Positions 2,602-54,547 of a stretch of DNA of 64,000 nt are shown in pieces. Each line of letters opens with the position of its first letter. Within the stretch, counting starts at the first letter, position 1. The DNA lies in NCBI GenBank assembly GCA_020152595.1, contig JAIGNY010002754.1:987501-1051500 (forward strand). The letters are read 5' to 3'. The DNA is from Chiridota heheva. Its lineage: Eukaryota > Echinodermata > Holothuroidea > Apodida > Chiridotidae. The notes under the pieces are model-generated. The model saw only the letters and a program-made list of their open reading frames with translations. It did not search any database and had not been told where the DNA came from. Position numbers and translations under genes: made by a program.

Positions 2602-2691
2602 ATGGGCAAGAAGAAGAATGCAAGCGGGAATTTAGGAAAGAGTATTATCAAAGACCGCTTCCGTAGTTCTGGTGGTCAACCAAGTTCGTGG
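2602..2691 (+). CDS. LSG1: LSG1 exon 1 (start codon)
   Basis: Thirty codons from [14 protein letters not shown] to GGQPSSW, a short basic N-terminus as in other LSG1 proteins. The ATG is chosen because of its good context (A at -3, G at +4) and because the family begins MG followed by basic residues. The donor is TGG|GTAAAT, phase 0. The next exon resumes with [11 protein letters not shown], which is what follows SW in the vertebrate protein. Confidence 0.85.
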
Positions 2692-14600: not shown

Positions 14601-17600
14601 ATCATATCTTGCAAACTACAACATTTATTAAACAACATTTAACAAAATGTACCACAATTGTAACTATACATATTAAATGTAATAAATATTTGTAGGGAAA
14701 CCTTATGCCAAATGAAAGATAAAACATTACTGTAGTATGTGTTCTGTGAAATATTCAATGTGTTTATGTTAGTTGTTTACCAAAATTCTTCCATCCAATA
14801 ACTTGTTCAACATTTATTTACCTTCTAATAAACATCAACTTATACCATAGAACTCTTAACTCAAATGAAACTTTGTGAATTGTTTTGATTTGTATTAAAC
14901 ATTATAACTTGTAATACACAGTATTTGAACATGACATGTCCTATTACATGAACATTTTATAATATTAGTTTTGCACTTTTTTTTAAATGAGGGGATGAGA
15001 GGGGGTATATCAAGACACACAGTGGGTCAGTGGTGTGTGTATTAAAACATGACACAGAATGATTATTATTTGTATCAATACCATTAAAGCTAGATGAATC
15101 TCATGCTAGGTGGTTAGGTGTACATTCCCTGTTTTTAAACTCAATATAGGCCTATGATAATGACTTTTAAAAACAACATTTTCTGCTCTCTATTTTCAAG
15201 GGTTTTATGTACAATTTCCTAAGCTGGGTTGTGAAGGTTGACTTTTCAATCCTTTTAAGTTCCACCCATTACACAGAGTGTAATGAGTGGAACTTATCAA
15301 ATCATACATGAGCTCCCCACATGTGCCTGTGCAATGGTTTGCTTTAAAATGCATCTCCTCCTAGGTTTTAACAGCTTTGCTCTTAAAATTTTGGCTCAAA
15401 CAAGATTTTTGTACGCGTCATATACTGTAGCTTGTATTTTGCTAAGAGATATTCTATGTGTTTTTTTATTAAAGCTCCTAAAAGTTTTCACTACAGTATC
15501 ATATTTCATACGTAATGGTGCTAAAAATAGCTAGCTGTAGACATAATGCTCTGCATATCGCACATGGCTAGGTTCTCATGCATTCAGTACATGTGTTTTC
15601 TATTAGCACTACGATATTTACTACTTTTATTAAACATATCTAAAAGCTGGCGTAATATTATCAACTTGTGTAGTAGTACCTTTCATATAAAACCAAAATT
15701 ATGCAATTTCATGAAAATTTGAGTGAATTACAGGATGATAAAAAAATCTATATCAGAGATTTGATGCCGTGTAAAATTTTTGGGACGTGACTTTGTGTTA
15801 TGTCAGGGAGTTGGCATTAACCCTTTACCAGGGCTTTGAAAAAAGCAAGCCCAATTTTTTTAACTTTTTTTTTATATGCATTTTTGACAACTTTCCTTTC
15901 ATTTTCTCTCTTACAAGTTTGGTTAGAATAGGGGCTATGATATTTATCTTTTGAGTAATGAAAGCCAAATTAGGAAATATTGGACAAAAATATGCAAATT
16001 AAGCAATTTTCGGCTAAATTTGGTCAACAAATGGTCAAACTTTGCAGAAGTATAACTTCTTGTCAATATTGAAAACAGAGATTTGTTCTACATGTTTAGA
16101 TTCTTTTTAAAATTTCCTTTTCAATGATGCTAATCAAGAATTTTTAGAAAAATAGGAAAGATGAAAAAACACCCAAAATGATTATAGTCAAAAGACTCCT
16201 GAAAGCTGCAGCAGAAAAAAAAAGTTACGCAGTGGTCACGGTGAGACTTAAACCTGGAGTGCTCGCTTGCTACTCTGCACCACGTGGTCATTGAAATTGA
16301 AGAGGTGTAAAATAATTCTTATAGAAAAAGTTCTAAATAGACTGGGGCATGCCATTATTTATATATCAAATGAAAGGAAATTGCAAGCACTTTTGATTTG
16401 TACGTAATGTTAAGCATAACTTACTTATATTTAGGTAAGCTTAATTAAATGATTTATCAGCTGGTTTTAGAGTAAATTTAAGCCGATGTCCGCCTGGATT
16501 TCAGCATGCATGATGCAGTACTGTTACAGTACCTTCGTAACGTAACTAATGTAGTGTAGTGTACACAAATGAATACACTGTGTGTAGTAGGGAGTACTGC
16601 TTTAGCAGCCATTCTCGACTGCAATCTGTAGTACAGGCCTACTATGAATAACGATTTATGTTCAGTTATTGTGTACGGACCATCTATATGTCTTGATCTA
16701 TATGTATAATTTGTTTAGTTGTGGTATTGCTGAGAGAAACTTACTTTTGATTCAATAAAAATATTTTTTATTTCATTTTTTTTCTTCTTTCGTTTTCATA
16801 AAAAATTACTTGATACTTTAAACATTTTAATTAATATTCATATTAAATCAATTCAATAACACTTAGTCACATGTATGGTTCAAAGTTGTACTATATCAAC
16901 ATCTTATTGGAATATTACAAGTTCATTCAAATTGGTTTTAATCAAATTAAATGCATCTAGTTTTAAACAATGTCATAGCGAGTAAATAATCCAAAATGTG
17001 TGGAATTCCAATTAATTTCATATGATTATTGATGATTTTTTTTAATTATGTATTTGTTTGTCTTGTTATTTGAATTATACACACAGTTTAGCTAGAAACT
17101 TACAAATCAGCTTAATTATTTATTTGAAGCACACTGAAATAATTTCAGATTTGCACACTTGACCCAATCATGATTTGTCTCACTTTTTGTCAATGTTAAT
17201 TAATTATTTAGGTCATTAATTAGACTTTCCCTTTGTTTAGTATGTCCTTAGATGCTAATTCTATACATGGCTAAACCATTTGCTAAAAACGCAGCTTATT
17301 TAGTTTCAAAACTGCATTTAACTCAAATTTAGCAAATTTTACATTAAATCACATTTGTCCCACTTTTCCAAATTAGTGTATGTTATTGTTTGTTTACACT
17401 TAAACCATGTCAATTAATTCTTTAACGATGTCATATCATCATCCATTTATTTTTTTTAAGTTGGAAGAGAATATTGTACAGAACAAGAAAATACTTGATA
17501 GCATTGGTAAAGTAATATGTCCAAACATTTATTATGCTTTCAAAATGCTTAATTCTTCAAAATTGACCAAGATTTGGCCAGATCTGATTGTCATGGAAAC

Positions 17601-20600
17601 GATCATCAACAACTTAGAGGTAAACAGATTTAAGCTAAAAATGAGTAGACTTCAAGAAAATCTTCAAATTACATTTGAAAAGATTGAATATGACAAAAAT
17701 AAAATTGCTTTGAAAATAAAACCAGTCAGTTGGTTTTTGCACTGCCATGGGTTGAACTATAACATCATTGATGTCTAGTTATGTCTTGAACTTGTAGAAG
17801 TTGTAGTCTTGCTGAAGTATTATCCTCAAAACTTTCTTGGCTGGTCCAAACATGCTGTGACATTCAGGGGTTGGAATACGTGTGAGCAATGCGGTGGCAT
17901 ACATACTAGGTGAATGTCATGGGCTTTTGTTGCTGTGATGAGATCTACAGTGATGTGACTTATGTGCCCTTCAAATAGTGTACTGCAGTTGAAGATATGC
18001 ATGTTCATGTGCAAGATTGTTGTAAATAATGTACATGTGGAAGGTTGTACAGATTGGTGGAAACTTGTCTAAAAACTGAAAGTTTGTCGTTTTAGATATT
18101 AGCGAGGTTAAAAGTATATGTTAATGGTTTTAGCTAACTACTCTACTTCCACCAATGACTAACATACAGTAAGAGTACTTATTTAATTTAGCACTAAGTC
18201 CAACATATATACTTTAGCTTGTTTTTGTGTCAAATTTGACATTATGTGGTAGAATTTATTACTGGGTCGTTTTACCCCGAGGCACTTCCATTTGCTTGGG
18301 GCAAAAAGGCCCACTTAAGTATGACTGAATGATAAACAAATTTAATGATTAATCATGATGTTATTAAGCCTCTTTAAAATCTATCTACTTAGTTATAATG
18401 AAAACTTCCAAGATCATATTTTGAAATGAAGTTTTGAGAGATAGGCTAAAGTTTCGACTGCCACTTTCTTTCACATTATTTTACAGATTGTATTCAAAAG
18501 CATCTATCTATCGGTGAACCAAACTATATATTGTCATTCTTTCCAACAGTTGTTTTATGTACAGTGTACTTATTAAAACTATATTTTATGTAACAAGACA
18601 TCTTACCATATTTGACTACGAGTAAAAACAAATTGGTGGGCCATTTTCGCCAAAGGGCCTTTTGGCCATTTTCCCCTAAGAGCCTTTTGGCCATTTTTCC
18701 CCAAGAGCTTTTTGGCCGTTTTCCCCCCAAGGGCCTTTTGGGCCTTTTGGCCATTTTCCACCAAGAGCCTTTTGGCCCCAAGGGCCTTTTGGCCATTTTT
18801 ACCCAAGGGCCTTTTTACCCCGGTTTTAATACCATATAGACTTTCAAAGCTTGTCTGCTCAAAGGGAAAAGGGTCTGTGCCTCACAGATTGGTCTCTACA
18901 GTCATCAACATAGCATGTTGGTGACATTTTCTCTTAACCTCCTCCTTCCCCTTTTCCCAAAACCCTCTCTGACATCAAACCGCTTATCGCTTCTCTTGTT
19001 CGTGACCGCTGGCAAACCTTATGGAACTTCCAAATTGATAACAAACTCCATGTTATCCAGCCCACAATCGATCAAATCCACCATTAACAACCTTTTCGTA
19101 TCGACAACGTTCATATTACCCGTCTTAGAATTGGTCACACCCACCTCACTCACTCCCACCTCCTTATTGGTTCCCCCAACCCCTCTGTAACAATTGCCAC
19201 TGCATCCTTACAATCCAACACGTTCTCCTTGCTTGCCCCCTGTACAACCTTCCCAGAGCTTCTCTCGCTCCCACAACTCAATTGCTGAGTTCTTCCAAAA
19301 AAATCCTCCAGATAAAATAGTCTCCTTCCTTCAGCATGCATCCCTCTACAACCATATTTAATCCTCCTCTTCCACCCCCTCTCTACTCTGTTTTTAGTTT
19401 TACCCATGCACCTCCTCTCTCGATCACAGCTTTCTGGCTTTTGTTCTTGAATTTCTCTCATTCTTCCCCTGGTCTCTTTCCTTACTACCTCTAAAAAGAT
19501 CTGACCTCTCAGGCACAATTTGACCTTCGTTGTCGTGGTGCCGTTAAGACCTCATCAAACAAACAAACAAACTCTTCCCTTTATCCTTGCATGTGAGGAC
19601 TCAGCTATTAACTAAAAAACAAGATTGACTGTTTTTATATTTCATGCATGAAATAAAATGCACATGCCTGATAACCCAGGGACCTTTATGGTGTACAATC
19701 ATTTTTGTCATTGATATGTATAGCATAGAGAATTGTATCTAAGTGTGATGATCTCTGTCACCTTTTACAGCGGCATACTAGTGACTTGAAAGATGGTTAC
19801 GATTGGCATTGCATCAACCTCAATTCTGTCACGGAGCAGAATTCCTTGGATGAATTTTTAACGACTGCAGAGCTTGCAGGACGACGTTTTACAGCAGGTA
19901 AGATATGATTCATTGCAACTAATGGGTAAATTAATCACCAATGGGTGTGGCCTAATATTCACATTAAAAAGCTTGATGGCAGGTTTCCTGCAAAGAAGTG
20001 AAATATTAGATTAAAGGGAGAAATTCCCACAAGGAAAAATAAAGGAATTATTTTTGAACATTATTTTGCTGGATATTGATTTGCAAGGAATTGATCTTTC
20101 ATTGCATTGACACCTGTGCATAGTGCACTGGTCACATTTTAACACGGATGGGTGCAATCTTTGAATATTATTACTTCAAAAACATTTTTTTTCACTAAAT
20201 TTAATTTGTTTCTTTAAATGTCCTCTATCAAAGGTATGACAATGAAAATATACAGGAATATACTGTATTCCTTTACACAGTTGAGACATATTTGGAAAGA
20301 TAATTTTTTGTTCTTTCAGAAAAAATGAACATAAGCGTGATTGATCCTCAACAACATTGTGGTTTGCCATCTGTTGAAGAGACAGAAGCCATCATTCAAG
20401 CTCAAGAACAAAACAAGGCTCATCTGAAGATACCGAGAAGGTGAGAAGTGATGTGCTTACTCATGCTAGGAACTTTTATACTCTGCTATCATAAAGACAG
20501 TGGAAATATGTTGATGGGCATGAAAGATGGTCATTCACAAAGTTTGAAAAACAACAAATACAAGCTTAACATGTGGCAAAAAAAAGTACATATATTATTG

Positions 20601-23600
20601 GCTGTACTCAGATTCAGTATGTGCCCAGGTTCTATGCAATGTCATGTACCAACAGCATAACATGTTAGTTATTAACCCGGTGGGTCTGCAAACAGTGAAT
20701 TCACAACTGGTTACCAAAGGCCGTGGCCGTCTTGATATAATGTCCAGCACTGGATGCTTTCGGGACGTTAAACCTTGCTATGCTATGCTAACACTTTGAT
20801 ATAATATATGATATCTTAGTTGTCAGTAGTTTACTAATGTCTATATGGTGTTCATTAGATATGACAAGTGCTACTTTCTACTTGAGGGAAATCACAAATT
20901 ATTGCGTTTTAAATCTGGTTTTGTATCAGTCACATGTTTAAGTTTCTGACCTCTGACCTATTTTCTCCTTCGTTAGACCTCCATGGGATGAGAACACAAC
21001 AGCAGAGGCGCTTGAGCTGAGAGAGAGGGAAGGATTCTTGGACTGGAGGAGGCAGCTTGCAAGGTACACATCTGTAGTTCAAAATAAAGCTCTTGGAAAC
21101 AACTGAAGGGAATCAATTTGACTCAGGGCTCAAAATTAGTACCGTATTAGACAAATTAAGCTCCCTTGCTCTAATAAGTGCCTACTCAACATTTTTTGAC
21201 TGATAATATAATTGTTTTAATCAATTTGAAGACTTAAAATAAATTTTGTTACATTATTTGCTTATTTTGCATCTGACGCTGACAATGTGTTTTTGGTGGT
21301 CATTGTGGGGCTAGTATAGAACAAGTTCACACAATGAAGTCTGAATAGCACACTGTGTGTGGCCCCAAAGCATGGGCGCTTATTAGGAAGAAATTTTGCA
21401 CCTAAAAAGCTCTGTAATTCTATTTTCGTAAGCGCCCCCGGTGCTTATTATGTGGAATATGGTATATGGTTATCACTAGTCCATCAGGCTAGCAGCTTGT
21501 CTCACTTTTCACTAGCCTGAATGAACTTTTTATGAGCCGGAAATTGGCATGCATACTGGTATCTTTTTGATTAGATAAGTTAGACCACATTATTTGATTG
21601 ATATACTTGCCCGATGGACTTTAGGGTTTGTGCCTGTACATGAAATCACCTAGTCCTGGCTAATGCCCTGCTATTGATGATATATTCTAATGAAAATTTG
21701 ATGATGTCGGACTTGCTTGATGGGAGAAGTAAGTTTTGCTTTGCTTTATTTATTTGGTTCTTCACAACATATTTACATATAACAATATACAATATATACA
21801 GATATTCAATTGAGTTTACAAATATTTGAATTGTTGAAATACAGTTATCAACATATAGAAATGTGGATAGGTGTAGGATATAATAATATACAATATGTAT
21901 GTGAAAGGAAGTGTTGCAAAAAAACTCTGGAGAGCTTAACTAAGTACAACACTCCCTGGTTACAAAGTAAGTTAATTTTAGCATAAACTACCCACCCCAC
22001 CCCTTCGAAGTTACTAGACCTCCCCCCCCCTCCCTAATTTACCATCCCCCTACCAAAAATACCAGACCCTATTCCCCACCTATCCCCTACCCTTAAGGTT
22101 ACGGATAGAATATAACAAGTAGTAATAGAGTATTTAGTAATTATTTATACAATTTTGTCTAATGATTTTCCGAAAGCTGGCAAGAGAATTACAAGTTTGT
22201 ATGTCACAAGGGATGGAATTCCAAAAATCAATGGCTCGTTTACAAGTATTAAATCTAATCAGATTAGTGCGACATGGGGGACAATGAATCTTATTTGATT
22301 GACGGGTATTATATGGATGAAAGTTATTGTTTGTCTTAAATAGATTAACTAAAGGAAATGGGAGGTCATTATGTGTTGCACGATAAACAATAGTTGCAAG
22401 ATTGATTTGGATCAGGTAAGGCAATTTCAGAAGATTAAGCGACAGAAAAAGCTTGCTGGTACTTTCACGATAATGAGCATTGGTAATATGTCGAATAGCC
22501 TGTTTTTGTAAGACAATCAATTTATTTAAAGTGGTTTTAGTTGCACTTGACCAAACACTGCAACAATAAGACAAATGAGGCAAAATAAGAGTTTGATACA
22601 AGCACCTTAGAATATTTCTTGGAATATAATATTTTAATTTAGAAAGGATACCAACAAATCTAGAAATTTTGTTACAAATTGAATAAATATGGTCTGACCA
22701 GGAAAGATTGGAGTCGATGGTCACCCCTAAAAATTTGGTTGAGGTTACTTTATGGACTATTATACCATTCAAATTGATAGTGACATTCCAATTTTTACTA
22801 AGAGTACCAAAAACAATATAATTAGTTTTAGCTGCATTTAAAGAAAGCTTATTAGCACAGAACTAGTCATCTTGTAAATCATAAGCGTTACTACCATGAT
22901 AAAAAATATTTGTGTCATCTGCAAATAGAATTAAAGATGATTTTAAAGACACATTACTTCTATCGTTAGTATATAAAATAAATAGAAGTGGTCCTAATAT
23001 AGAGCCTTGAGGGACTCCACACTTAACACGAGAAAGATCAGAACTGCAATTATTATAATACACATACTGATGCCTATTAGAAAGGTAGCTATAAAACCAA
23101 TCAAGAGCTTTACCTCTTATGCCATAAAATGATAACTTTTTTAATAAAGTGTGATGATCAATGGTATCAAAGGCCTTAGACAGGTCAAGGAAGATTCCAA
23201 CTGCTGAATCTTTTTGTTCAAGGGCTTTATATAATTTATTTATTGCAGAGATAAGTGCTGATTCCATAGAATGACCTGGTCTAAATCCATACTGATCATC
23301 AAATAAAATGTTGTGTTTGTCAAGGAAAGCTAATATACGATTAAACATCAACCTTTCAATGATTTTAGATATACATGGTAAGATAGATATAGGGCGGTAG
23401 TTTTCATAAACATGGGGATCATCTTTCTTATAGATGGGGACAACTTTGGCAATTTTTAGTCTGTTAGGAAAAATACCTGTGATGAATGATAAGTTGGAAA
23501 TGTGAGTTAAAGGTTGAACAATGTGATGAATTACTAACCTGATTATACCAGGTTTGAGGTTGTCAGAACCAGCAGACTTATTAGATTTAAGACACGAATA

Positions 23601-26600
23601 CGCTACTTTAAATACTTCGTTAATTGTTACAGGATTAAGGAACAAAGAACTTAAAATGCTCTTGTTTGGCTCTAAGTACTCATCAAAGGATTTGTTACCA
23701 TTTATATTGTTAGCAAGAGTAGGGCCTATATTGACAAAAAGTCATTAAAATGATTGGTAATAGTTTTGGGGTCAGTGACTGGATTGTCTCCATCACTGAA
23801 TGAGGATACCAATTACTTGACCTTTTATTTAAAAGTTCATTTATTATACTCCAAGTACTTTTGGCATTATTTTTACAATTGTTAAATTTTTCATTAAAGT
23901 AGTTCTTTTTGAAAAGCGAATAACATGATTTAATTTATTTCTATATTTCTTGTAGTTGGTTTTGTTTTCACTAGATGGATTTCTTAGAAACCTTCTATAT
24001 AATTTATTATTAACTTTGATTGACTTAAGAATTCCAGAAATTATCCATGGATGCCATTTACGATTAGTTTTAGTATTTATAGTTATATGTGGAAAACAAT
24101 TATCATAAATATGATCAATGGTATTTACAAATCAATCATATTGGTAAGTTCTGGACTGCGCCAGAGGGAGATTTATATTGCTGTCAATATCAGTATGTCT
24201 GCCTACAGGTAGCAAGTGCCAGATTCCCAAAAAGGAAGAGTCCACGAGATGATGCCAATATAACATGAACAACTAGAATATTACCACTCTCTAGAGCGCA
24301 TACCTTCGCCCGCTGCAATTCCAACATGCATAGAATAATTTAATAGAATATTCATTTGGTCCCCATAGCCATTATAATATACCTCAGAAATCCTAGGCCC
24401 ACCAAGATTCATCCCCAAGTTTTGATCTGTAATGAACATTTGCAATCTGAACACTTCAAGATTATCATCTGACTGGCTTTCTTCCTAGGCCATACCATTG
24501 TTTTCAGTTTTATTCAAGTAAAGCACCATTGTTTGAGCTGTATTCAGCCAGGTTTCAAATTCCATCATTTTTCATTCATGGCAGAAACCAATTGTTTCAT
24601 TTTCATTGATTCCAAAGAACTCGTGATATAAGTCTCTTTGAGTCCAGAAAATTGATTGTTTGGATCTTCATTCAGAGTGCAAAGTCATAGTTCAGCACAT
24701 TCCATTGGAAAGTTTCAAATTAGTCTTGACAACTAAGTCTTGACAGATCTCATCCTAAAACATCCCACTCCTCAATTTCTGCTCTTCCAATTAGTCCCAA
24801 ATTTTAATCACTTCTTCATAAAACAGTAACAAATCCTCACACCAAAATTTATCCAAATCCAATTATCAGTTCTGGAGATATCTTGATGACATACAAACTC
24901 AACTTCAAATGTCCACACCCCTCCATTTGCACCCTTTTTCTGTTCCAATATGTCTCAAAATTTAATCACTTTATCCTTAAGCAGTAACAAAACCACACAC
25001 CAAATTTAATTCAAATCAAATTATCAGTTCTGGAGATATCTTGATGACAGCCAAGCAAACAAGAGGCAAAAACATGTCCCCACCCCCCATTTGCACCCTT
25101 CCCTGTTCCAATACTTCCGAATTGTAATCACCTCTTCCTAAAGCAGTAAAAAAAAACACACATCTAATTTAATCAAAATCCAGTTATACTACTTGAGATA
25201 TGTTGATGACAAACAAACATAACCTCCTCCAACGAAAATTGATAAGTGAAATACGTCACTTAAAGATTTGGTCTAAAGTACAAAGTTATTGTCCGCTGAT
25301 TAATTTTAGGCTTGGTATGACAACATTAGACATTGGTCATGTGATTAGAAATTTTCAGGACAAAATGAAAATCCATAAACAAATCTGGTCAATTCAGACA
25401 TTAAATTCAAATAAACAAGCTATTTTTTTCAAGTTGTTTAATTTGATTCAGTGTATATTTGGTTGAAGTAAAGCTGATGAACTTAAAGAAAGGAAAAGTG
25501 AATTAATTGGATAATCTCATAGTGTTATGAGGGAGAATATGGTAGGTTTTAAATCTAACGAAACAAAATTGGCTCCAAACTGTGTTCTCCTGCCTTTCAG
25601 TGTTGTAGTCTTGTGTACACACAGACCATTTACCAAACGTTCATCTTGATCCATAAAACAAAAAGGTGCCAAAGACCAAAACAAAAAAAAATTACCAAAA
25701 TGGGCATGTAAAGGTCGAAATATGTTAATCCCCATCTTTTCTCTCTCTTCAGTCTTCGAAATATGTTTCATCTTTTCTCTCTTCAGTCTTGAGGGAAAGG
25801 AGCAACGAAATATGTTAATCCCCATCTTTTCTCTCTCTTCAGTCTTGAGAAAAAGAGGCAACGAAATATGTTAATCAGCATCTTTTCTCTCTCTTCAGTG
25901 TTCAGGAAAAGGAGCAACGAAATATGTTAATCCCCATCTTTTCTCTCTCTTCAGTCTTGAGGGAAAGGTGCAACGAAATATGTTTTCTCTCTCTTCAGTC
26001 TTCATGTTAATCAACATCTTCAGTGGAAAAGGAGCAAGTCTTAAAATATGTTTAAGTCAGTTAAATCTTTTCTCTCCTCAGTCTTATCTTTTCTCTCCTC
26101 AGAAAAGGAGCAATGAAATATATTAATCAGCATCTTTTCTCTCCCTTCAGTCTTGAGGGAAAGGTGTCGAAATATGTTAATGCATCTTTTCTCTCTTCAG
26201 TCTTTAGGAAAAGGAGCAACGAAATATGTTAAATCCCATCTTTTCTCTCTTTCAGTCTTCAGGAAAAGGAGCAACAAAATATGTTAATCATCATCTTTTT
26301 CTCTCTTCAGTCTTAGCAACGAAATATCAGCATCTTTTCTCTCTTTAGTGTCCAGGAAAGGAGCAACTTAAATATGTTAATCAGCATCTTTTCTCTCTTC
26401 CGTCTTTAGAAAAAGGAGCAACGAAATATGTTAATCATCATCTTTTCTCTCTCTTCAGTCTTCAGGAAAAGGAGCAACGAAATATGTTAATCAGCATCTT
26501 TTCTCTCTTTAGTGTTCAGGAAAAGTTAATCCCCATCTTTTCTCTCTCTTCAGTCTTCGAAATATGTTTCAGCATCTCTCTCTTCAGTGTTCAGGAAAAG

Positions 26601-29600
26601 GAGCAACGAAATATGTTAATCCCCATCTTTTCTCTCTCTTCAGTCTTGAGGGAAAGGTGCAACGAAATATGTTAATCCCCATCTTTTCTCTCTTCAGTCT
26701 TCGGGAAAAGGAGCAACGAAATATGTTAATCAGCATCTTTTCTCTCTTCAGTGTTCAGGAAAAGGAGCAACAAAATATGTTAATCATCATCTTTTCTCTC
26801 TCTTCAGTCTTCAGGAAAAGGAGCAATAAAATATGTTAATCATCTTTTCTCTCCTCAGTCTTGAGAAAAAGGAGCAATGAAATATATTAATCAGCATCTT
26901 TTCTCTCCCTTCAGTCTTGAGGGAAAGGTGCAACGAAATATGTTAATCGGCATCTTTTCTCTCTTCAGTCTTTAGGAAAAGGAGCAACGAAATATGTTAA
27001 TCAGCATCTTTTCTCTCTTTAGTGTTCAGGAAAAGGAGCAACAAAATATGTTAATCATCATCTTTTCTCTCTCTTCAGTCTTCAGGAAAAGGAGCAACGA
27101 AATATGTTAATCAGCATCTTTTCTCTCTTTAGTGTTCAGGAAAAGGAGCAACGAAATATGTTAATCAGCATCTTTTCTCTCTTCAGTCTTCTCTTCAGCA
27201 TCTTTTTCTCTCTTCTAATCATCATCTTTTCTCTCTCTTCAGTCTTCAGGAAAAGGAGCAACGAAATATGTTAATCAGCATCTTTTCTCTCTTCAGTCTT
27301 CAGAAAAAGGAGCAACGAAATATGTTAATCAGCATCTTTTTCTCTCTTCAGTCTTCAGGAAAAGGAGCAACGAAATATGTTAATCAGCATCTTTTCTCTC
27401 TCTTCAGTCTTTAGAAAAGGAGCAACGAAATATGTTAATCAGCATCTTTTCTCTCTCTTCATGCAGTCTTGAGGGAAAGGTGCAACGAAATATGTTAATC
27501 AGCATCTTTTCTCTCTCTTCAGTCTTCAGGAAAAGGAGCATTTGATTTTGACCCCCTTTGAGAGGAACCTAGAGTTCTGGAGACAATTGTGGCGGGTGAT
27601 AGAAAGAAGCGACGTGGTTGTGCAGATTGTGGATGCAAGAAACCCTCTTCTGTTCCGATGTGACGATTTGGTGAGTGTGGCTCTTTGTTTCTGTCTTTGA
27701 AATTTTATCCTTTAAATAATTTTATGAGCAGCATTTACAAAGGCCATGCAGCATGAATTTGGGGGTGCTTTAAACGTCCAGTAGAGAGAAATCAATAAAG
27801 TAAGTTGTGTATCTGCATACTTTTATATTAGAGAAATGTTGTAAACAATGTCAAAAGAAAAGGAACTATCAAAGTAAACATATCTTGAAAAATGTAGATG
27901 ATTTTGGTGGGGAAAAAATGGCAGGGTGGAGGGAAAAAGGGACAGGGAGAGGATAATAAGGGCAGGGCTGGAGCTCTTACTGAAAAAAGCCTAACTAGGG
28001 GCCTGTCTTTGAGTGCAAATTTTATGGGGAGTATAGAGAAGTATTTTTATTGGGACTTACAGGCCCCTAACTTGAGCCCAAAAGCGACATGCATGCCAGT
28101 GACTAATTGGGGGTATTTACAATGTACATGGGCTATTCAGCGTGAAGTTTGAGGAACTTGAAATGCAAATTGGAGATTAATCAATACAAGTGCTTGTACC
28201 TGCATCTTTTTTATCGGGGAACTGTCAACGGCATGACCAAAAAGTAAAGCAATTCTCAAAATACTTTTATTGTTGAACAAACTGTATCAGTCAATGACTT
28301 CAGTTCATAGCAACTTTACAGGCATTTTTGTTGGTGGATTAACCTTTACTCTACCAGCACTTGTTTTAAATGCTACTGGAAAATGGAGTCAAAGTAAGAG
28401 TTAAGCACAGGCTGATTATTGAAGGGTCCTCTGCCTTCAGAGCAGCAAAGTTGGGCTCGTTCCACTTTAGTAACCCGGTGGGCCTCCCACCAGGAACATG
28501 CTGCATATTTTTTTGAGTTGGTGCATTTGTCGCAGGTTGATTGACCCTTACTCTACCAGCGCTTTTTTTTAAATGCGCCTGGGAGGCAGAGTCAAAATGG
28601 GGCACTCAAAACAGCAATAATATTGCCATGTGGTAGAGTAAGGGTTAGTCTGACAGAAACCCTGGAACTATATATTTCATACAACTCTAGAATAAGTGCA
28701 AAACACAAAACAATTAAATCAAAACAATATTATTGTGATACATTCTTTCAGAGAGCAGAAACAGTGAATATTCCAAATATATACTTTATATTCTAAAAAT
28801 GAAAATACTCATCTCTTTACACCTCAAATGATATCAATAGCTATAATTTTATTGCCACAGGAGAAATATGTGAAAGAGGTTGGATCTAACAAGGAGAATA
28901 TGATTTTGATCAGCAAAGCCGATTTTTTGACTGAAGAGCAACGTTTGGTGTGGGCAGAGTTCTTCAACCAACAGGGCATACAAGTGGCGTTCTGGTCAGC
29001 TGTGAGCGAAACGGAGAGAATAAAAGCAGAGGTAAAGTACTTACTTTTACTTTAAGATGAAAAAAATGTAAAGAAAGTGCAGACATATCGTACTTCACAG
29101 AATTTAAAGTGTTTTAGAACATCTTTAATGTATTGATATAGCTTTGTTAGGTTACATTATAATCTGTCCATTCACATAATCTCCTTGTGACTGCTTTTAT
29201 TGATGGTATTATACTCAGAAGTGCATACTTTTAGGTGTATGGACAGGTAGAGGCAACACGAGCTAAATTGATATAGGTGTATTGCAAATCAAGCTAAAAA
29301 ATTCATGAAGCTAAATTGATTTGAAATCCCTAAAAACCATGAAGCTAGCGAAAAAAATCATCAAAACAGTTAAAAATTTGCCATTTTACAGCTTTTTGAA
29401 TATTTTTGTGCAAATATGCAAATTTTTGTGTTACTCATGTGATGTATGAATGGGACATAGTCTCTATTCTCTCATGTAAATTCATCGTTTTTTAGCCCTC
29501 TGCAAATTCTCTTTGAAAAAGTGAATATAATTCTAATGAAGAGGATTTAATCTTTAATTTACCCTTGACCAATTTTAAGCTGAAGAAGGCATTTTGAACA

Positions 29601-32600
29601 TAATTTGAAATTAAGGGAAGAAATATAAATAAAAACAAAGCATTTTCCTGTTCATACATCACATTTTTTCAATGAAAAAAAAAAAATTGATTAAATTTGA
29701 TTAAAATTTGAAAACTATGTTATTATCAAAATTCAACGACTATTCAACTCAGAATGTAATACTCTTTTGGATCCGTGGTTGAATAGAAAACTTTCTAAGT
29801 GGTATAGCTAAAAGCCTAGTAGAATAAACCAAATTGATATTAAAGAACAAGTTAAATGGCAAATAAATGGAAAGTTTTGAGTTGAATTGGTAAAATATCT
29901 CACATAAAGAATGCCATTAGAAGATAAGGAAAGAAGATGTAAAATAATTGTACCTTAATAGACAGTATAAAAACTGTTGTTTCAAATGACATCATACCCT
30001 AAATATAGAAATGATAAATCCACAAATAATATTAAAGATTATCTCTTTAGTTTTTATTCTGCAGCATAGATTGGGCACATGAAGAAAATTCATTGGGAAT
30101 AATCTGTGGTCCTGTCCTTGTTTCTTGAAAGATGACTTAAAAACATTAATTTAAGTTCCTTTACTTGGGAGTTGCTGACATTATCAGCAGGGGCATAAAT
30201 ACCTGGGAGGGGGTGTGTGGGGGGTGTTACAACCCCACTTTTGGTGAAGCTGTCAGTAAAATTGAAGACCTGTTGGTAAATCAAGGTCCGCATCAGTAAA
30301 ACTTCCATGAAAGAAGATAAAAACTTTTCTAAACAGATTGAAAAAAATAAATATTATGGCCTCGTTCTGTGATTTTGAAGAAATGACCCTTTTTTTGCTT
30401 TTCAAATTTTGATGTTATGGGGGCTCTGAATTCAGAATATATTTTTGTCTGTAGCATCGAACTCTTTTGTTAGTAAATTTGTAATTTTACCCCCCCTTCC
30501 CCTCAAAAGGGTCTACTGACGCCTCTGATTATTAGTGTCAGAAGCTGAAAAGGCATTTGTTGTCAAGTACTTCATTCACTGTGGAATTTTATTTTCATTT
30601 ACAGGAAGCTCTGGCACAGATCGCTGAAGAACAAGCTGAAAACAAACTGAGGATGAAGATAAAGATGAAGACGATGAGAGTGAAGATGGGGAAGATGTAG
30701 TTGCATTTGAATCTGAAGGCGATGAACATCCGCATACTTCAAACATTGAAAGAAATTTAGAACAAATGAAATTATCTGATAGCAATTCTGGTAGTAATCA
30801 TGATGAGGAGAGTCGTTTGTCCAGAGAGATGGTGATTCTCCTGATCTTAAAGAACAATGTGAAAATGTTGATACAATGCCAATCACTCAAACAGACAAAC
30901 GAGAAGAAAACGTACACTGTGATGTCAGTGCATCAGATTGTGTGAATAACGCTGCAGTGAAAGAGGACAGTGACGCTCAGTCTAGTAGTCCCCCTTCAAA
31001 AGTGGAAGTCCTTATCCGACCCTTCTACATTGCCAAAAGTGGAGGAGTCACTATCCGATGAATATTCAAATGATGTGGAAGGCGCCAGAAATGAAGAAAT
31101 CAATTCCCAAAGTGCAATGAATAGCAGCAACTCTCTTGAGGGAAAATTGAATAGTGGGAAACTGGTGACAGGGGATGAACTGCTGCAGATATTCAGCAAT
31201 GTGTGCAAGGGCGATGAGAGGGTCAGTGAGGGTATCACAACAGTGGGACTGGTATGTGCAATTCACTCTAACCCACCTATTAATAGTTCAATTGCCAGAA
31301 TTTTGAAAAACTTGGAAGTTTGGTGTGCCAAACATAGGTTGCATCAAATTTATTTGTATCAAATACCACTTATTTCCTGACCTAGTAGAGTTATAACTAA
31401 TAGAACCTAAAATCAGGAAGTGGGTAGCATTTGTTACAATGTCAAACATTTCTAACCCAGCTACTAATTATGCGAGTTGGGTGGGTTTCCTCATGATTTA
31501 TAGGGCCCTTATGCATAATGCGGATCAAATTTCTAAGAATATTTTGATACATGCAAAAGATGTGAATACATAAGTTAAAAGGAAACCTTTTTCACAAACG
31601 AGACAAAGTGCTTTCTTGGAAAACATAATAATACACTTTATCACTCATCAAGATTTCCAATGTTGTGTTTTGAGTATGAAATATTCATATGGCAATATTT
31701 CATTGTTAGTGGCTTTTTAATCGTCATATCTTCAATGCTAATAATATTATTGATGCTGCTTATGTTATGAATATGCAACAAGAATATTTTTGTGATTTCA
31801 GTATAATGAGGTATTTACATTTGTAGCAAATTACTTTAGATGTTTCTGCAAAGATTCAGATTACCCAAAGATAGTTTATTAAACTATCATATGGTGCAAA
31901 GTTTTCAGTGTTTTTAAAAATCATAACCCTGAAATCTGAATGACAGATGAAAAGTAGTTAAAGAATTAGTTCAGTGGTCAAGCAAGTCAATCTTATATGG
32001 AAGAGGAACTCGTAAGAACAAAATAGTGATGAGAGCATTTAAAAATCTTATTCCGTTAAGAAGATATTTAAGTTTAAAGTTATGTTCGTTATGTTCCATG
32101 TGCTTCGACATTATAGAATACCAGAAGCTGTGGTCAATGCCTTTAAGTGCACTCTACAACAACTCAAAAAGTGCAGTAATGGTAGATGGCAACATATCTG
32201 ATTCTTTTGATGTCTCCACTGGAGTTCTACAGGGTGATGTTCTGGCTCCATTCCTAGTCATAGTGTAAGTAGACTTTTAACTAAGGAAGGCCACCTCTGA
32301 TCGTGACTCTGGAGTTGTAACACATCCTCATCACTCCCAGTCGTTCTACAGTTAAAACGTTAAAATGATTTGGATTTTGCTGATAACATTGCTCTGTTGG
32401 AATCCACTATTCCCCCGCACAGGCCCAGCTGACAAGAACTGCAGCTGCAGCAGAAGATCTTGACCTCATAATAAGTGTATCCAAGACTGAGTATATGACT
32501 GTTAGCTGCCATCCCCATCCAACACTCCTAGTACACGGTCAACCCATCAGCCATGTTTCAGATTTAAAATATCTTGATTTCAAAATGACATCTGCTGCAA

Positions 32601-35600
32601 GTGACTTAAAAAGACCAAAGACATTAGCATGGTGCACTTTCTGGAAACTGGAACATCTGTGGAGAAGTCCTCAACTATCCATCTCTGCAAAAGTGAAATT
32701 ATTCTACACTACCTGCGTGACTATCCTCCTTTATGGCTGTGAATCCTGGGTGTTGTCCCAGGACATAGAGTGCAAAATCAACGCTTTTGCTACATTATGC
32801 TAAATATCAAATGGAGAGATCGTGTCTCAAATGCCAGCATATATGACATGACCTACACTGAGTCTGTTATCCACTGTGTAAGGAATCGGCAACCGAGATT
32901 CTTGGGACACATCCTTCGTCTCCCAGAGGAGGAGCTTGCTAGGCAATATGCTCTCCACATCCTAACTGATGGCAAAAGAAGACCGGGACGTCCACGTACC
33001 TTTTATGTTAACTACATTCAATGTATGTTAGGATATGATGAAGACATCCAAGCAGAGCAGATAGCCACACTTGCCAAAGATCGTTGTACATGGAGAAATC
33101 TTGTGGTTGCCTGCTCCGCAGCCAAAGGATAATGATGATCATTTGTGTAGAAATGACTGAAATCAGACTAGTTGTGACGTCACAGCCTCAGATGCCTCAA
33201 AGTCTTTATGTAGTCTATCATATTTTGTCTTGCGATTTTATGGCTAAAAAACAATGGATATGTCAGGAAAGTAGTCAAACAGAATTGAGTAAGGGTAATT
33301 ATGATCAACCACCTGTAGAATGTTCAAGGAAAAATAATTCAAGTAGTAATAAATTCGAATACATTAACAATTGTTAATAATGTGAGGATGAGGGCGCCAA
33401 CCTTCCATAGTAGACTTACTACACCAGTCATTTTTACACGGATGAGAAAGAGCTTTAAACTTGAATATCTACTAAACAGAATAAGATTTTTGAATGCTTT
33501 CTTCACCATTTTGTTTCTTTTAAAGTCTTCTTTTGTATAAGATGGACATGTTTTATCTCGAACTAATCCTTTAATGGAATAAGATTTTGATTGCTTTCTT
33601 CACCATTTTGTTTTTTTAAAGTCCTCTTCCATATAGGTGTAAGATAAACTTGACCACTAAACTAATCCCTTAATGCATTATGACTATAAACATGCTTTTC
33701 AACATTTTGTAGCTTATGGTTTCTTTAACACAGCATAGCATAGCAAAGTTTAACATCCCGAAAGCATTTAGTGTTGGACATTATATCAAGACGGCCATGG
33801 CCTTTGATAATCAGTTGTTGCAGACCCACCGGGATTTGAACCGGGACGTGCGGGTGAGAGGACAAAGCACTAACCACTACACCACGGAGGTCTGATCATA
33901 ATTGGAAAGTTTGCTCAGCAAATTTATTTTCTTTTAAGAATAATCCTTCTTCTGTTGTGTAAGAATATTTTGCCATTAGCCGTGTATTTTTGTTTTATTA
34001 ATTCAGGTCGGGTACCCAAATGTTGGCAAAAGCTCCACCATAAATGCTTTATTGCAACAGAAGAAGGTTCCTGTGTCGGCCACTCCAGGCAGAACCAAAC
34101 ATTTTCAGGTTTGACAGTTGCTTACTTTTTTTAAAGAATTGATATCATAAGTCTGAGAAATAAATATATTCAGCAATGTTCCTTTTTCCAGATGGTATCA
34201 TTGAAGTTAGCACCTAAGTTCAATTTGTATTGAATGCATTAGAAGTCAAATACATCCAGCATACATGTAGATCGATTGAGCAAGGGGTAGGTGTAGGGTA
34301 TAACTTTCGACCAAAAGATCTCACCTTTAAGCTGTAATTGCAGGTGTTCCTCTAACACTGAAACGTAATTACACCTGCAATTTTCTTAACATAGTTAATT
34401 TGACCAACTAACTACAATTACAATTGTTGAATGAGTGGTAAGATTCACTTAAAGGAGTAATGAAGCCTATACGATCATTATTTCACATGATAGAGGATAT
34501 CAATTTTAACCTACCAAAAACAGCAAGTCAAAATCTTATTTCTATCTCAAGTTATTGTTGTTTGAAGTTGACACATGGAGGCTGCCATTTTGTTCAATTC
34601 TGTATTGAATATTGTGCATGATGACATAATTTTCCCAATAGGGACATAAGGAATTTAATGTACATGTATTTCTTTATAAATGTGATTAAAGGTTTAATTC
34701 CAAAACGATGTGAAACAAAGTTTTAACAGAATGTTTTGTTAATTTCATGTGTACACAAAACATTCCTTTACCCTTACATACAAAAAATAAGAGAATTCTC
34801 ATAACTTATAAATCTTGAGTTAGATTATAAAGAAATACAAAGCATTCCAACATCCTGCTGGGCTGATGACATCATAATCTGCATGTTTTAAAATCAAAAG
34901 GGGGGCTCCCATAGTACTATTTGTATTTAAATTAAAGTTTTTAATGATTATAGTGTTGGATTGCTTAAGGGTGTATGAAACTTGGCCAGAAAAATCTGTT
35001 ATTTTTGATTTTATCATGTGAAATAAGGATTATGTCAGACTTGATGTCTCCTTTAAGAATATCTTTGCTTCCTTCCTCTTTCCACTGCACAATGATGAAT
35101 GATAATGCTCCCCCACCCCACCTGGCATATACTTGATACTGAAATGAAAATGAAGACCTTAAAGACTGGGAGGCTCGTCTGAGTTCGTACAACATTTGTC
35201 TCTGTAAAGTTGGAGGATGCAGAGCTCTGACGTCTCTTCCTGTTGTGGAATGCAGAAGATCCTTGTCTGTTAGTACATGCGCATAAATAGCGTTGTGTGT
35301 GAAGATTGAATTGTAGTGCATAACCGTTATTACGATCTACGAGACACTTGTTTTTTTTAACGTATTTGTTAAAAAGAAAAAGGTGGAAGAGAAAGATTAG
35401 TAAGATAATACTACAATAGCAGTCACTATACGAAAATTACAATGAGCCAAAAAAGAAAGAGAAAAATTCGAGAAAAAAGGTTCTGGGAGATTTGAACCTA
35501 CAAATGTTGGTGTGAAAAAAATTTGAATTTCACAACATTACTGACTGGGCCACATCAAGGGTTTGTCAAACTTGGGGTTTTGATTTATATATACTGTAAA

Positions 35601-38600
35601 ATAGGGGCTAATGAATTGTGTAGCGATTGGTTGAAACTTCAACCAATCAAACAATTTGAATCGAGTTCTAAACATTTTGTCCACATGACGATTTTACCTC
35701 TTTGATCAAAGGTGGCTTAGACCCATATGTGAGGGCATCTTTTTAGTAAAATTTTTTTCAAATATTCAACGCCCTGTTTTGCCCCCCATAGTGATAAAAT
35801 GGTATTGTATATGATCTCTGATAATAACTGGGTAGAAATATTGGCGGTAAAGATGTTTTGTTAGTCTCTTGAAGGGTCAGAAAGCTTGTCTAGTGCGTCT
35901 TTGAAATAATAGTAGCAATGTTAGGATATACAGTTGTTCCATGCTCCTATCCTATTTCTTGTTTTAAAGCTTATTTTCCTGGATATGTGTATTTGTAGTT
36001 CATTGACTTCAGTATTTGTCTTTGTCAGAGCTTAGTAAACAGTTGTTCCAAGTACTACCAATATATCAAAATATTTGCTTGGGTAATTTGTCATTCTGTT
36101 TGTTCAAAATTATCTCCTCAAGTCGTCCATTAAGTTTGCAGCAGTTGTTATGTTCTGATCGTCCTCGTAACGGAAGATTTGTGTGCTGAGAAATGAGTGC
36201 TGCATCCAATACTTAATTATTTTTTGTAATGTGTTACGTCCAATTAAGACCCCATGTTCTAGCGGTCATAGCAGGTTTAATTTCTGGTGGGTCTCCAACC
36301 ACTGCTTCACAACTGGTTTTATGAAATGGCTGTGGACATCTCTATATAATCTTAGCCTTTGAGAAAAAGATGTGAAATACCCCTCAAAAACAACCACTTA
36401 ATCTGCCGCTGTAAGAAGGCCTTCCTTTCTCTGATCTAAAAAGCAACTAATCTCTAAGTCCAGTACTGGCTAGTGATTTATAAGTGTTGTATCTATCTTT
36501 TCTACAGACACTCTTTGTTGAACCAACTCTCTGCCTCTGTGATTGTCCAGGTCTGGTCATGCCGTCCTTTGCGACCTCTAAAGCTGAGATGGTGGTCAAC
36601 GGTATCCTGCCAGTAGATCAACTCAGAGACTTTGTTCCTCCTGTGTCAGTGATATCCTTTCATCTTTTGAAAATTTGACCTTTCACCTTTGTCATCCCCA
36701 TCTAGGGATAAAGGATTCTTACTGTCTGGGAGGGTGTAACAGGAATGGGATATACAGTTTGATGGTGGGGGGTGGTAGGTGAATGGCATATGTGTAGGTT
36801 AATGGAGGACGATAGATGGAAGGGGTAATGTACGTTAGATGGAAGGGGTAAGGTTTGTTAGATGGAAGGGGTAATGTACGTTAGATGGAATGGGTAAGGT
36901 TTGTTAGATGGCAGGGGTAAGGTTTGTTAGATGGAAGGGGTAAGGTACGTTAGATGGAAGGGGTAAGGTACGTTAGATGGAAGGGGTAAGGTACGTTAGA
37001 TGGAAGGGGTAAGGTACGTTAGATGGAAGGGGTAAGGTTTGTTAGATGAAAGGGGTAAGGTTTGTTAGATGGAAGGGGTAAGGTACGTTAGATGGAAGGG
37101 GTAAGGTACGTTAGATGGAAGGGGTAAGGTACGTTAGATGGAAGGGGTAAGGTATGTTAGATGGAAGGGGTAAGGTGCGTTAGATGGAAGGGGTAAGGTA
37201 CGTTAGATGGAAGGGGTAAGGTACGTTAGATGGAAGGGGTAAGGTACGTTAGATTGAAGGGGTAAGGTACGTTAGATGGTAGGGTGAATGGTTTGTAGTG
37301 TATATGGGGTAGAAGATGATGGGGCAAAATGAGTGAGAGATGGGAGGAATTGGTGAAATGAGTGAGAGATGGGAGGATTTGGTGAATGGAGTGAGAGATG
37401 GGAGGAATTGGTGAAATGAGTGAGAGATGGGAGGAATTGGTGATATACAGAAGATCAAGTGGAAAGTGAACACTGCAGAGCAAGATTGAGGTGGAGGGCA
37501 GCGCTTGTGTATATCATAATTGTAGTTCACTGTATAGTGCATACCTCTGCCCCAGTTTATTTCCGTCCCCAGTATAATCTACCTCAGAAACCCTAGGCCC
37601 ACCAAGTTCTTGCCCCCCCCCCAAAACCGTTTCTCACCTTTGGTCTGTATTGTCATTTGCATTCAGGATCTACCTTCTAATTGATTTTATTGTTTTCAGT
37701 TTTATTCAGGCTAAGCATTCATTGCTCAAGTTCCAATCAGGCAAGATTCACATTCCATCATTTTTCTTGCAAGAAGTCACTTGTTTTGCTTCTCATTAAT
37801 ATTATGTGTCCCAAGGCAGTGGTGGGTTATTTGTATCATTTAGTGATGCCGTGTTAGTATTGGACTGAAATTTATCTTGTAGAATTTATTGTCTGTTGTT
37901 GTCTTTCTGTCCCCAGATGTCTTTATTTTGGGAAAAATAAGGTTATAATTTGGTAATGCCTTTAATTTAAACTGGTTTATTGAAACCAGAGGGAAGAGTT
38001 TAATTCAGGTTATTGTGAGCCAGTCCCAAGAATTATCTGATGTGCAAGATGTTAGTCTTTAATTTCTAACCTGCTAAGCTAACTGACCCTTTTACAATGT
38101 TCAATGTTGGGATACAAGTTAGACAAAAAAATGCTTTGGGTTATATCTCTGCAACATTGAACCGGGGTATATGGGGAGAAAAAAGTGCAAGTACTTTTGT
38201 CCTGGATTGTAGTTAATGATTTTTATCCCGATCTAATAAATCTGCAAAATGGATAAAGCGAATTGTATATTAATGTTGCTTTCTTTTATTACATTAGCTT
38301 TTGAATGTGTAACAGTTGTTCAAAGTTGGGCAAATTAAAGCACAACACCTTTCTTATTTGGTGCAAGAAAAAGCTGTGTCTGTGAAGATTCTGTAGATAG
38401 GATCATTAAGACTGACATAGATTTAGTCATTTCTATGACTTAGATGTTACAGAGAAAATTATGACTTACCAGGTTATCTCAGGTAGACAGAAACATGACT
38501 TACTTATCCCTGCGTATTAGATGTTACGGAAAAAATTATGACTTGCCAGGTTATCTCAGGTAGACAGAAAAATAACTTACTTATCCCTGCGTATTAGATG

Positions 38601-44573: not shown

Positions 44574-44820
44574 ACTTGGCTTGATGGACAAATAGATTTC
44601 ATCTAGATGTCAAGTAAACACGACAACAAATAGATTTCATCTGGATATCAAATAAACATGTCTTAATAGACAAATAAATCTCATTTGGATGTCAAATAAA
44701 CATGTCTTGATGGAGAAATAGATTTCATCTGAATGTCAAATAAACTTGACTTGATGGACAAATAGATTTCATCTGGATGTCAAATAAACTTGGCTTGATG
44801 GAGAAATAGATTTCACTTGA
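44560..44820. repeat. ~44-bp minisatellite built from the LSG1 stop codon
   Basis: Six units. The first is the end of the coding region: GGATGTCAAATAAACTTGGC, then TTGATGGACAAATAGATTTC and ATCT. The others differ by a few bases, and the second has a 6-base deletion. Every unit but the second keeps AATAAA inside AAATAAAC, so the 3' untranslated region carries a string of possible polyadenylation hexamers. Confidence 0.94.
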
Positions 44821-48545: not shown

Positions 48546-48949
48546 TTGGCCCAAAAGAAAATGGTTATTACACCAAATTTAGACTTTAACAAGCTTACAT
48601 TACTTTTCACGAACAGCTGATTCCAATTTAAAGATCTGCCTAATGAAAGTGGGAGAAAAAATAGAATTTACCTCCTGAAAGTGTTAAGAGGGGGGGGGTA
48701 AAGTTACAAAATCACACTAAGATACAAATAATCACTATACAAAAGATATAAATACGAAAAAAATGGGGAGAGAGTGAACGCCCCCTCCCCTCTCCCTCTC
48801 CATAATAGATGGTGAGGAGTGAACATACATCATGGAAATAAGTGACTATATATAATATTCATGATATTGGTCAGGATCTTTCACCTGGAAGGTTTCTGTA
48901 TGAGTAACCTTCTATTAATCTCTCTCCCCCATTATCCTACTCCTCCACC

Positions 48950-51914: not shown

Positions 51915-52338
51915 CTCTTATTAAGCCTGGTTATAAATGACAGTTTATATGTACTTCTTATTGAGCCTGGTTATAATTGACAGTTCATATGTACTTTTTA
52001 TTGAGCCTGGTTATAAATGACAGTTCTTATATACTTCTTATTGAGCCTGGTTATAAATGACAGTTCATATGTACTTCTTATTGAGCTTGGTTATAAATGA
52101 CAGTTCATATATACTTCTTAATGAGCCTGGTTATGACAGTGTATATATACTTCTTATCGAGCCTGCTTATAAATGACAGTTTGTATGTACTTCGTATTGA
52201 GCTTGGTTTTAAATGACAGTTTATATAAACTTCTTATTGAGCTTGGTTATAAATGACAGTTCTTATAAACTTCTTATTGAGCTTGGTTATAAATGACAGT
52301 TCTTATATACTTCTTATTGAGCCTGGTTATAAATGACA
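51915..52338. repeat. 40-bp satellite, left block
   Basis: About ten units of CTTCTTATTGAGCCTGGTTA followed by TAAATGACAGTTCATATATA. It ends abruptly inside a LINE open frame at about 52338. The right block of the same satellite begins at 54548. Confidence 0.96.
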
Positions 52339-54545: not shown

Positions 54546-54547
54546 CA

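What the first reader, a model, noticed from the sequence alone, without database searches (positions are those of the whole stretch)
25725..27540. A minisatellite made of copies of the LSG1 exon 5 acceptor
The ~56-bp unit contains the pyrimidine tract, the AG and the first 18 coding bases of exon 5, and the true exon is the last unit. About 30 near-identical 3' splice sites thus precede the real one, all on the same strand. Splicing to a decoy would add LQEKEQ-like residues and soon a stop in most registers. Either the spliceosome ignores them, or the cell makes many extended isoforms. A minisatellite seeded at a splice junction of a conserved gene is unusual.
Basis: partly seen in the sequence, partly recalled or inferred. 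Interest (0 to 1): 0.85.

Follow-up and report, generated by a model that had tools for sequence, protein, structure and literature searches.

The report
Repeated decoy splice sites in LSG1
A stretch of DNA holding the cutting signal in front of one exon of a ribosome-assembly gene has been copied about 33 times in a row inside the intron, a quirk already reported in lancelets under the name "mirage", and the same gene carries two more such arrays at other exon ends.

Summary
A minisatellite of mostly 54-56 bp units fills window 25716-27540 (34 rows). Its last unit is the real 3' splice site and first 18 coding bases of LSG1 exon 5. By a fixed rule 33 acceptor-like sites precede the real one. 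Four are identical to it over 31 nt. All 33 would meet a stop inside the array, so decoy use is unproductive. Human LSG1 aligns without gap across the exon 4/5 junction, so the exon seeded the array.
New here: the same gene has two more. A 26-bp array of about 50 units copies the exon 10 donor (39072-40420). A 44-bp array of six units copies the stop codon and an overlapping AATAAA (44556-44813). Whether arrays favour exon edges depends on the null.
Best reading: a tolerated passenger, with exon definition picking the last acceptor. The organism is unidentified, and two exons carry frame breaks, so assembly errors or a decaying copy stay open.

The parts
25716..27484 (+). Array 1: 33 decoy rows of the LSG1 exon 5 3' splice site unit, some truncated or scrambled
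   Evidence: TRF; wraparound decomposition; acceptor-like AGs
27485..27540 (+). Authentic terminal unit: branch-like TATGTTAATC, pyrimidine run, AG at 27521-27522, first 18 nt of exon 5
   Evidence: equals in all 56 columns the reference unit that I chose; the majority consensus differs from that unit only in the pyrimidine tract
27523..27670 (+). LSG1 exon 5 ([49 protein letters not shown]), donor TTG|GTGAGT
   Evidence: human LSG1 6lsr chain 1, (E 4.5e-24); exons 1-6 together (E 3.3e-91)
20977..21063 (+). LSG1 exon 4, ends AAG|GTACAC in phase 2; the splice partner of exon 5
21064..27522 (+). LSG1 intron 4 (6.46 kb), contains array 1 and a separate repeat of 158-bp period at 24785-25211
39072..40420 (+). 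Array 2: 26-bp units (majority CCTTAATGTATATGCAT|GTAAGTAAA) copying the exon 10 donor; first unit 39072-39097 is authentic; 51 further rows with at least 60% of columns; 24 GTAAGT
38965..39088 (+). LSG1 exon 10, donor CAT|GTAAGT at 39089
   Evidence: exons 8-11 together against human LSG1, (E 2e-67)
44556..44813 (+). Array 3: six 44-bp units (first authentic) copying the last codons, stop codon TAA and overlapping AATAAA of exon 13
   Evidence: exon 13 matches the human LSG1 C-terminus, (E 2.1e-9)
2602..44573 (+). LSG1 gene span, 13 exons: 2602-2691, 19771-19897, 20320-20440, 20977-21063, 27523-27670, 28861-29031, 30605-31251, 34007-34108, 36508-36651, 38965-39088, 40711-40790, 42332-42470, 44340-44573
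   Evidence: boundaries set by homology and splice dinucleotides; homology; exon 7 (three breaks) and exon 12 (one break) do not read through in one frame

Best explanation
Array 1 is a mirage-type minisatellite. A segment of about 56 bp straddling the intron 4/exon 5 junction of LSG1 was tandemly duplicated, perhaps through the AAAGG present on both flanks (inferred). It then expanded and turned over by unequal exchange or slippage (inferred from mosaic unit variants). Because the exon half is coding, the real junction stays as the terminal, exon-proximal unit while copies lie on the intron side (position shown, cause inferred). Most decoys carry a branch-like motif, pyrimidine run and AG like the real one (shown by sequence; splice strength not measured). 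Four match it exactly over 31 nt, so the choice must come from context: the last acceptor is the one that pairs with the exon 5 donor 148 nt away, by exon definition in a 6.5-kb intron (inferred). The array has no donor-like site at the cut-off used, so decoys can hardly form internal pseudo-exons and would lengthen exon 5 (shown for that cut-off). Each such product tested has a premature stop (shown) and should be removed by nonsense-mediated decay (inferred). The array is thus most likely a tolerated passenger with a small splicing cost, mainly from the few decoys that would give an exon of 500 nt or less.
For:: array structure, real unit last; human LSG1 ungapped across the junction; 33 of 33 rule decoys stop before exon 5, and the missed unit at 27467 stops inside it; four decoys (26459, 26808, 27079, 27243) identical to the real site over 31 nt (-18 to +13); six rule decoys give an exon of 500 nt or less (27467 would be a seventh); 0 donor-like sites of 7/9 or better in array 1; the same architecture at the exon 10 donor and at the CDS end, each with the real signal as the exon-proximal unit; lancelet mirages have the same anatomy and are said to leave splicing normal.
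Against: No transcript data were available, so real splice-site use is untested. Exons 7 and 12 carry frame breaks, so the gene copy, or the assembly, may be imperfect, and indel errors could also shift frames inside the array. The unit's splice core looks less variable than its exonic part (28 of 34 rows), which pure passengers do not predict; with all 34 rows the contrast ranks only 6 of 55 rotations.
Confidence: 0.72

Rival explanations
1. The array is a regulatory poison element: decoy acceptors are used in a controlled share of transcripts, giving stop-containing mRNAs that lower LSG1 output (unproductive splicing), and array length tunes the level.
For: All 33 rule decoys lead to a stop. 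Branch-like motif, pyrimidine tract and AG show fewer substitutions than the exon-like part in the 28 of 34 rows used (0.011 against 0.086 per cell).
Against: With all 34 rows realigned, 23 of 61 variants fall in 31 of 55 columns (core plus spacer), rank 6 of 55 rotations, so constraint on decoys is not established. Published mirages are said to leave splicing normal. A stop in every decoy is also what neutral repeat DNA would give.
Confidence: 0.1
2. The locus is a decaying LSG1 copy (pseudogene), so its splice sites are free to degenerate into repeats.
For: Exon 7 needs three frame changes and exon 12 one. The G4 motif reads SKAD where human has NKAD.
Against: The other 11 exons are open and the 12 introns can be given 11 GT-AG and one AT-AC ends that also fit homology (boundaries chosen with those dinucleotides in mind). 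Matches to human LSG1 are strong, E 3.3e-91 and 2e-67. The frame breaks could be sequencing indels (not tested). Other LSG1 copies of the host could not be searched.
Confidence: 0.12
3. The array, or its copy number, is an assembly artefact.
For: The frame breaks in exons 7 and 12 suggest residual indel errors. A lancelet mirage was once mis-assembled in a genome draft.
Against: Units differ by many shared and private variants and truncated forms, and two further arrays with unrelated units show the same plan. An assembler stutter would be expected to give near-identical copies.
Confidence: 0.06
4. The exon start was captured by a pre-existing intronic array.
For: None found beyond the identity of the first 18 coding bases with other units, which either direction would give.
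Against: Human LSG1 aligns without gap across the junction, and yeast aligns from residue 3 of exon 5. The same plan at three exon ends with three unrelated units would need three captures. No close relative could be examined.
Confidence: 0.02

Closest known systems
Lancelet 'mirages' (Adh3, globin BflGb6 and BflGb9, troponin C, PGBD5)
   Same: Minisatellite-like tandem duplication of an intron/exon boundary; 3' and 5' boundaries both occur; many but not all units keep AG/GT; splicing said to be normal (passages of PMC3087553 and PMC3902484).
   Different: Here one gene carries two splice-boundary arrays plus one at the stop codon (PGBD5 also has two arrays, at exons 3 and 4). Copy numbers (33 decoy rows; about 50) exceed the 3 and 6 units of BflGb6 and the 2-7 units of PGBD5. 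The host is unidentified. Adh3 units are given as 10-72 bp, a range that includes these unit sizes.
[quoted passage not shown] seen only as a title in a reference list)
   Same: Tandem repeat units that each carry a splice site, as array 2 does for donors.
   Different: Per its title the repeated donors are provided to a transcript; in array 2 all 28 decoy donors of 7/9 or better lie behind a stop. That IFI6 is the gene G1P3 is recalled; the paper itself was not seen.
Intron gain by tandem duplication of proto-splice sites (Drosophila, abstract and section list of PMC2891723; human internal tandem repeats at exon-intron boundaries, passages of PMC2812944)
   Same: Tandem duplication multiplies splice signals and can make new introns.
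   Different: No new intron is seen here; the copies lie inside an existing intron or the 3' UTR.

Membership tests
mirage (tandemly duplicated intron/exon boundary) | Repeat unit spans an authentic intron/exon boundary, including coding bases | tested here: met
   Unit holds intron 3' end plus 18 coding nt; exon confirmed by human LSG1 alignment
mirage (tandemly duplicated intron/exon boundary) | Copies in tandem, minisatellite-like | tested here: met
   TRF; 34 rows
mirage (tandemly duplicated intron/exon boundary) | Many but not all copies retain the AG/GT splice signal | tested here: met
   AG in register in 30 of 33 decoy rows; rows 6, 7 and 13 lack it
mirage (tandemly duplicated intron/exon boundary) | Normal splicing is not disturbed | not testable with these tools
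   No transcript reads available
mirage (tandemly duplicated intron/exon boundary) | Length polymorphism between haplotypes, somatic instability | not testable with these tools
   One haplotype only; no genome held
mirage (tandemly duplicated intron/exon boundary) | Host is a lancelet, as in the cases found in print | tested here: inconclusive
   Host not identifiable: no genome held, no Rfam match at gathering threshold. Window GC 0.369; the lancelet figure of about 0.41 is recalled
LSG1 (large subunit GTPase 1) | Homology along the protein including GTPase core and C-terminus | tested here: met
   each give human LSG1 6lsr chain 1 as best hit; Pfam MMR_HSR1 in exons 8-11, no Pfam family at E 0.001 for exons 1-6. 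Most of exon 7 and the rest of exon 12 were not matched
Minisatellite providing multiple functional splice sites (IFI6-like) | Several of the repeated sites are used in mRNA | not testable with these tools
   No transcript data; 33 of 33 rule acceptors and 28 of 28 decoy donors would yield premature stops

The most novel reading that the evidence does not exclude
Exon ends act as preferred, self-renewing nuclei for minisatellites. An array seeded across an exon edge cannot lose its terminal unit, because that unit is part of a gene under selection, so it can regrow indefinitely, whereas arrays inside introns decay. In one gene this has happened at a 3' splice site, a 5' splice site and the stop/poly(A)-type signal, possibly in an animal other than a lancelet.
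Probability: 0.25. Interest if true: 0.7.

Novelty: new member of a known kind. Interest (0 to 1): 0.5.

Why it matters
With 33 decoy acceptors, four of them identical to the real one over 31 nt, the locus is a natural test of what tells the spliceosome which acceptor to use when local sequence cannot. Three exon-end arrays in one gene make an open question testable: whether tandem repeats arise preferentially at exon edges and supply raw material for new introns or intron sliding. If the host is not a lancelet, it would also extend mirages beyond the group in which the papers found here report them.

Tried and rejected
Not kept as a result: conservation of the decoys' splice core. It looked strong when six scrambled or short rows were left out (28 of 34 rows) but was weak with all rows (rank 6 of 55 rotations; the uniform binomial p of 0.004 ignores shared ancestry). 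I do not claim selection on decoys.

Ambiguous: enrichment of arrays at exon edges. With randomly placed seed units, 0.32 of 16 array clusters are expected to straddle an edge and 3 do (P 0.0034; second null with whole arrays, P 0.0038). Leaving out the reported array, at least two of the other 15 has P 0.032; among clusters of five or more copies, P is 0.00016 for 3 of 7 and 0.003 for 2 of the other 6. With random points instead of seeds, 47 of 400 control positions have a strong local copy (0.1175), against 3 of 26 exon edges (0.115), and no edge exceeds the control 95th percentile: no enrichment.

Ambiguous: growth from the exon end. Identity to the real unit falls with distance in array 1 (33 decoys, Spearman -0.38, p 0.03), not in array 2 (51, -0.09, p 0.55), and rises in array 3 (5, +0.97, p 0.005).

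Nothing found: Rfam 0 matches; no own genome. Array units elsewhere in the window gave only a stray array 2 unit at 40609-40642. I made ten paper searches and saw listings: all hits, but 15 of 26, 20 of 1,457 and 15 of 48. In what I saw, mirages were reported only from lancelets; most listed papers were not opened. The paper cited for the name (PMC117041) is not held, so it is cited through others.
Full report
WHAT IS THERE. Window 25716-27540 is a tandem array of a unit of mostly 54-56 bp, ACGAAATATGTTAATCAGCATC-TTTTCTCTCTCTTCAG-TCTTCAGGAAAAGGAGCA. A wraparound alignment to this reference, which I chose, gives 34 rows. The last row (27485-27540) equals the reference in all 56 columns; the majority consensus of all rows differs from it only in the pyrimidine tract. 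It runs on into TTTGATTTTGACC..., the body of an exon that reads [49 protein letters not shown]. Its best match among solved structures is human LSG1 (6lsr chain 1, E 4.5e-24).

THE GENE. I built a 13-exon model of LSG1 over 2602-44573 from homology and splice dinucleotides. Exons 1-6 and 8-11 align to human LSG1 with E 3.3e-91 and 2e-67. Exon 13 matches the human C-terminus (E 2.1e-9); the start of exon 12 and the end of exon 7 also match. Exon 4 ends in phase 2 and joins the T of TCTTCAG to give [20 protein letters not shown], ungapped against human [20 protein letters not shown]. So the exon start fits the ancestral length and the array was copied from it. Exon 7 needs three frame changes and exon 12 one. 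These may be assembly indels or decay; I left them as they are.

THE DECOYS. Under a fixed rule (AG after at least 8 uninterrupted pyrimidines), 34 acceptors lie in 25700-27545: the real one and 33 decoys. Eleven lie in the rest of the window on this strand. The rule's 33 and the 33 decoy rows agree only in total: rows 13 and 33 have no rule hit, rows 7 and 28 have two each. AG is in register in 30 of 33 decoy rows. Four decoys (exon starts 26459, 26808, 27079, 27243) are identical to the real site from -18 to +13. The real site's uninterrupted pyrimidine run is 16 nt; the decoys, chosen for at least 8, have 10-16; the 11 other acceptors of the gene have 0-7 by the same measure. Splice strength was not scored beyond this. 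Joining exons 1-4 to each of the 33 rule decoys, all 33 meet a stop 4-283 nt into the extension, wholly before exon 5. The unit at 27467, missed by the rule, meets one inside exon 5. Indels in the assembly could shift single cases. Array 1 has no donor-like site at 7/9 or better to MAG|GTRAGT (four of the gene's own 12 donors score 6 and the AT-AC one 3, so this is no proof), so a decoy would mainly lengthen exon 5; six rule decoys would give an exon of 500 nt or less.

TWO MORE ARRAYS IN THE SAME GENE. Exon 10 ends CCTTAATGCATATGCAT|GTAAGTAAA, and this 26-bp segment is the first unit of an array running to about 40420 (54 rows including end fragments; 51 rows besides the real one have at least 60% of columns). 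It holds 24 GTAAGT and 29 donor-like sites of 7/9 or better, the real one included; all 28 decoys lie behind an in-frame stop, which comes first in GTAAGTAA right after the real donor. The last exon ends HLDVK-stop. Its final 18 nt, CATTTGGATGTCAAATAA, open a 44-bp unit present six times (44556-44813), in which AATAAA lies in register in five of six units. In all three arrays the real signal is the exon-proximal unit.

IS THIS MORE THAN CHANCE? The existence of the arrays, yes. Preference for exon edges is uncertain. If each of 16 array clusters in the gene grew from a randomly placed seed unit, 0.32 would straddle an exon edge; three do (P 0.0034). Leaving out the array I was given, at least two of the other 15 has P 0.032, or 0.003 among the six with five or more copies. 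Counted by random points, however, 47 of 400 positions in the gene have a strong local copy (0.1175) and so do 3 of 26 exon edges (0.115). I regard the seed model as closer to how arrays arise, but a single gene cannot decide it.

HOW IT MOST LIKELY WORKS. Shown: tandem copies of a 3' splice-site segment on the intron side, real site last, some decoys locally indistinguishable, decoy products truncated. Inferred: origin by tandem duplication (AAAGG occurs at the left flank, GTAAAGGTCG, and in the exon, GAAAAGGAGC, and could have served as microhomology); turnover by unequal exchange; choice of the last acceptor by exon definition with the donor at 27671; decay of mis-spliced products. I weighed a regulatory role. 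In 28 of 34 rows the splice core had 0.011 substitutions per cell against 0.086 in the exonic part, but with all 34 rows the contrast ranked 6 of 55 rotations. Constraint on the decoys is therefore not established. Nor is growth from the exon end: identity to the real unit falls with distance in array 1, is flat in array 2 and rises in array 3.

WHAT IS KNOWN. [quoted passage not shown] 6 and 3 units in two haplotypes) and BflGb9, with Adh3 data and globin RT-PCR said to suggest regular splicing, and a proposed role in intron gain (PMC3087553, passages). PMC3902484 adds troponin C and PGBD5 in lancelet (passages). The paper cited for the name was not held. A human minisatellite with many donors is known to me only from a cited title. 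In the listings of ten paper searches (three of them shown in part) I saw mirages reported only from lancelets; the library lacks most subscription journals. I could not identify the host. Window GC is 0.369 and LSG1 exon GC 0.444; from memory lancelets are nearer 0.41 overall with more compact genes, so the host may be another animal, but this is a weak argument.

VERDICT. Array 1 is a new, large member of a known kind. The more interesting part, not in the first report, is that three exon ends of one gene carry such arrays, one of them over a stop codon and poly(A)-type signal, which the mirage passages I read do not describe.

Noticed in passing
39072-40420: 26-bp array seeded at the LSG1 exon 10 donor, about 50 units, 24 GTAAGT; all 28 decoy donors of 7/9 or better lie behind an in-frame stop.
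   Followed up: yes
44556-44813: 44-bp array seeded at the LSG1 stop codon; units repeat TAA and an overlapping AATAAA.
   Followed up: yes
36652-38964: LSG1 intron 9 looks like a U12-type AT-AC intron: starts ATATCCTTT, ends CCCTTAACTTTTGCTCAC; protein alignment across it is ungapped. The U12 consensus is recalled.
   Followed up: partly
30605-31251 and 42332-42470: Three frame breaks in exon 7 and one in exon 12 of an otherwise open LSG1 model; the G4 motif in exon 6 reads SKAD against human NKAD.
   Followed up: partly
51916-56014: A 40-bp minisatellite lies in two parts, 51916-52342 and 54548-56014, about 2.2 kb apart, with a frame bearing an RNase H domain on the minus strand between them.
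   Followed up: no
48934-51676: GC-rich 25-bp minisatellite, 112 copies at 96% matches, the longest array TRF lists in the window.
   Followed up: no
22866-23741 (-), 258-695 (-), 10626-11259 (+): Interrupted reverse transcriptase frames (Pfam RVT_1).
   Followed up: no
40609-40642: A detached copy of the array 2 unit about 190 bp beyond the array, in the same intron.
   Followed up: no
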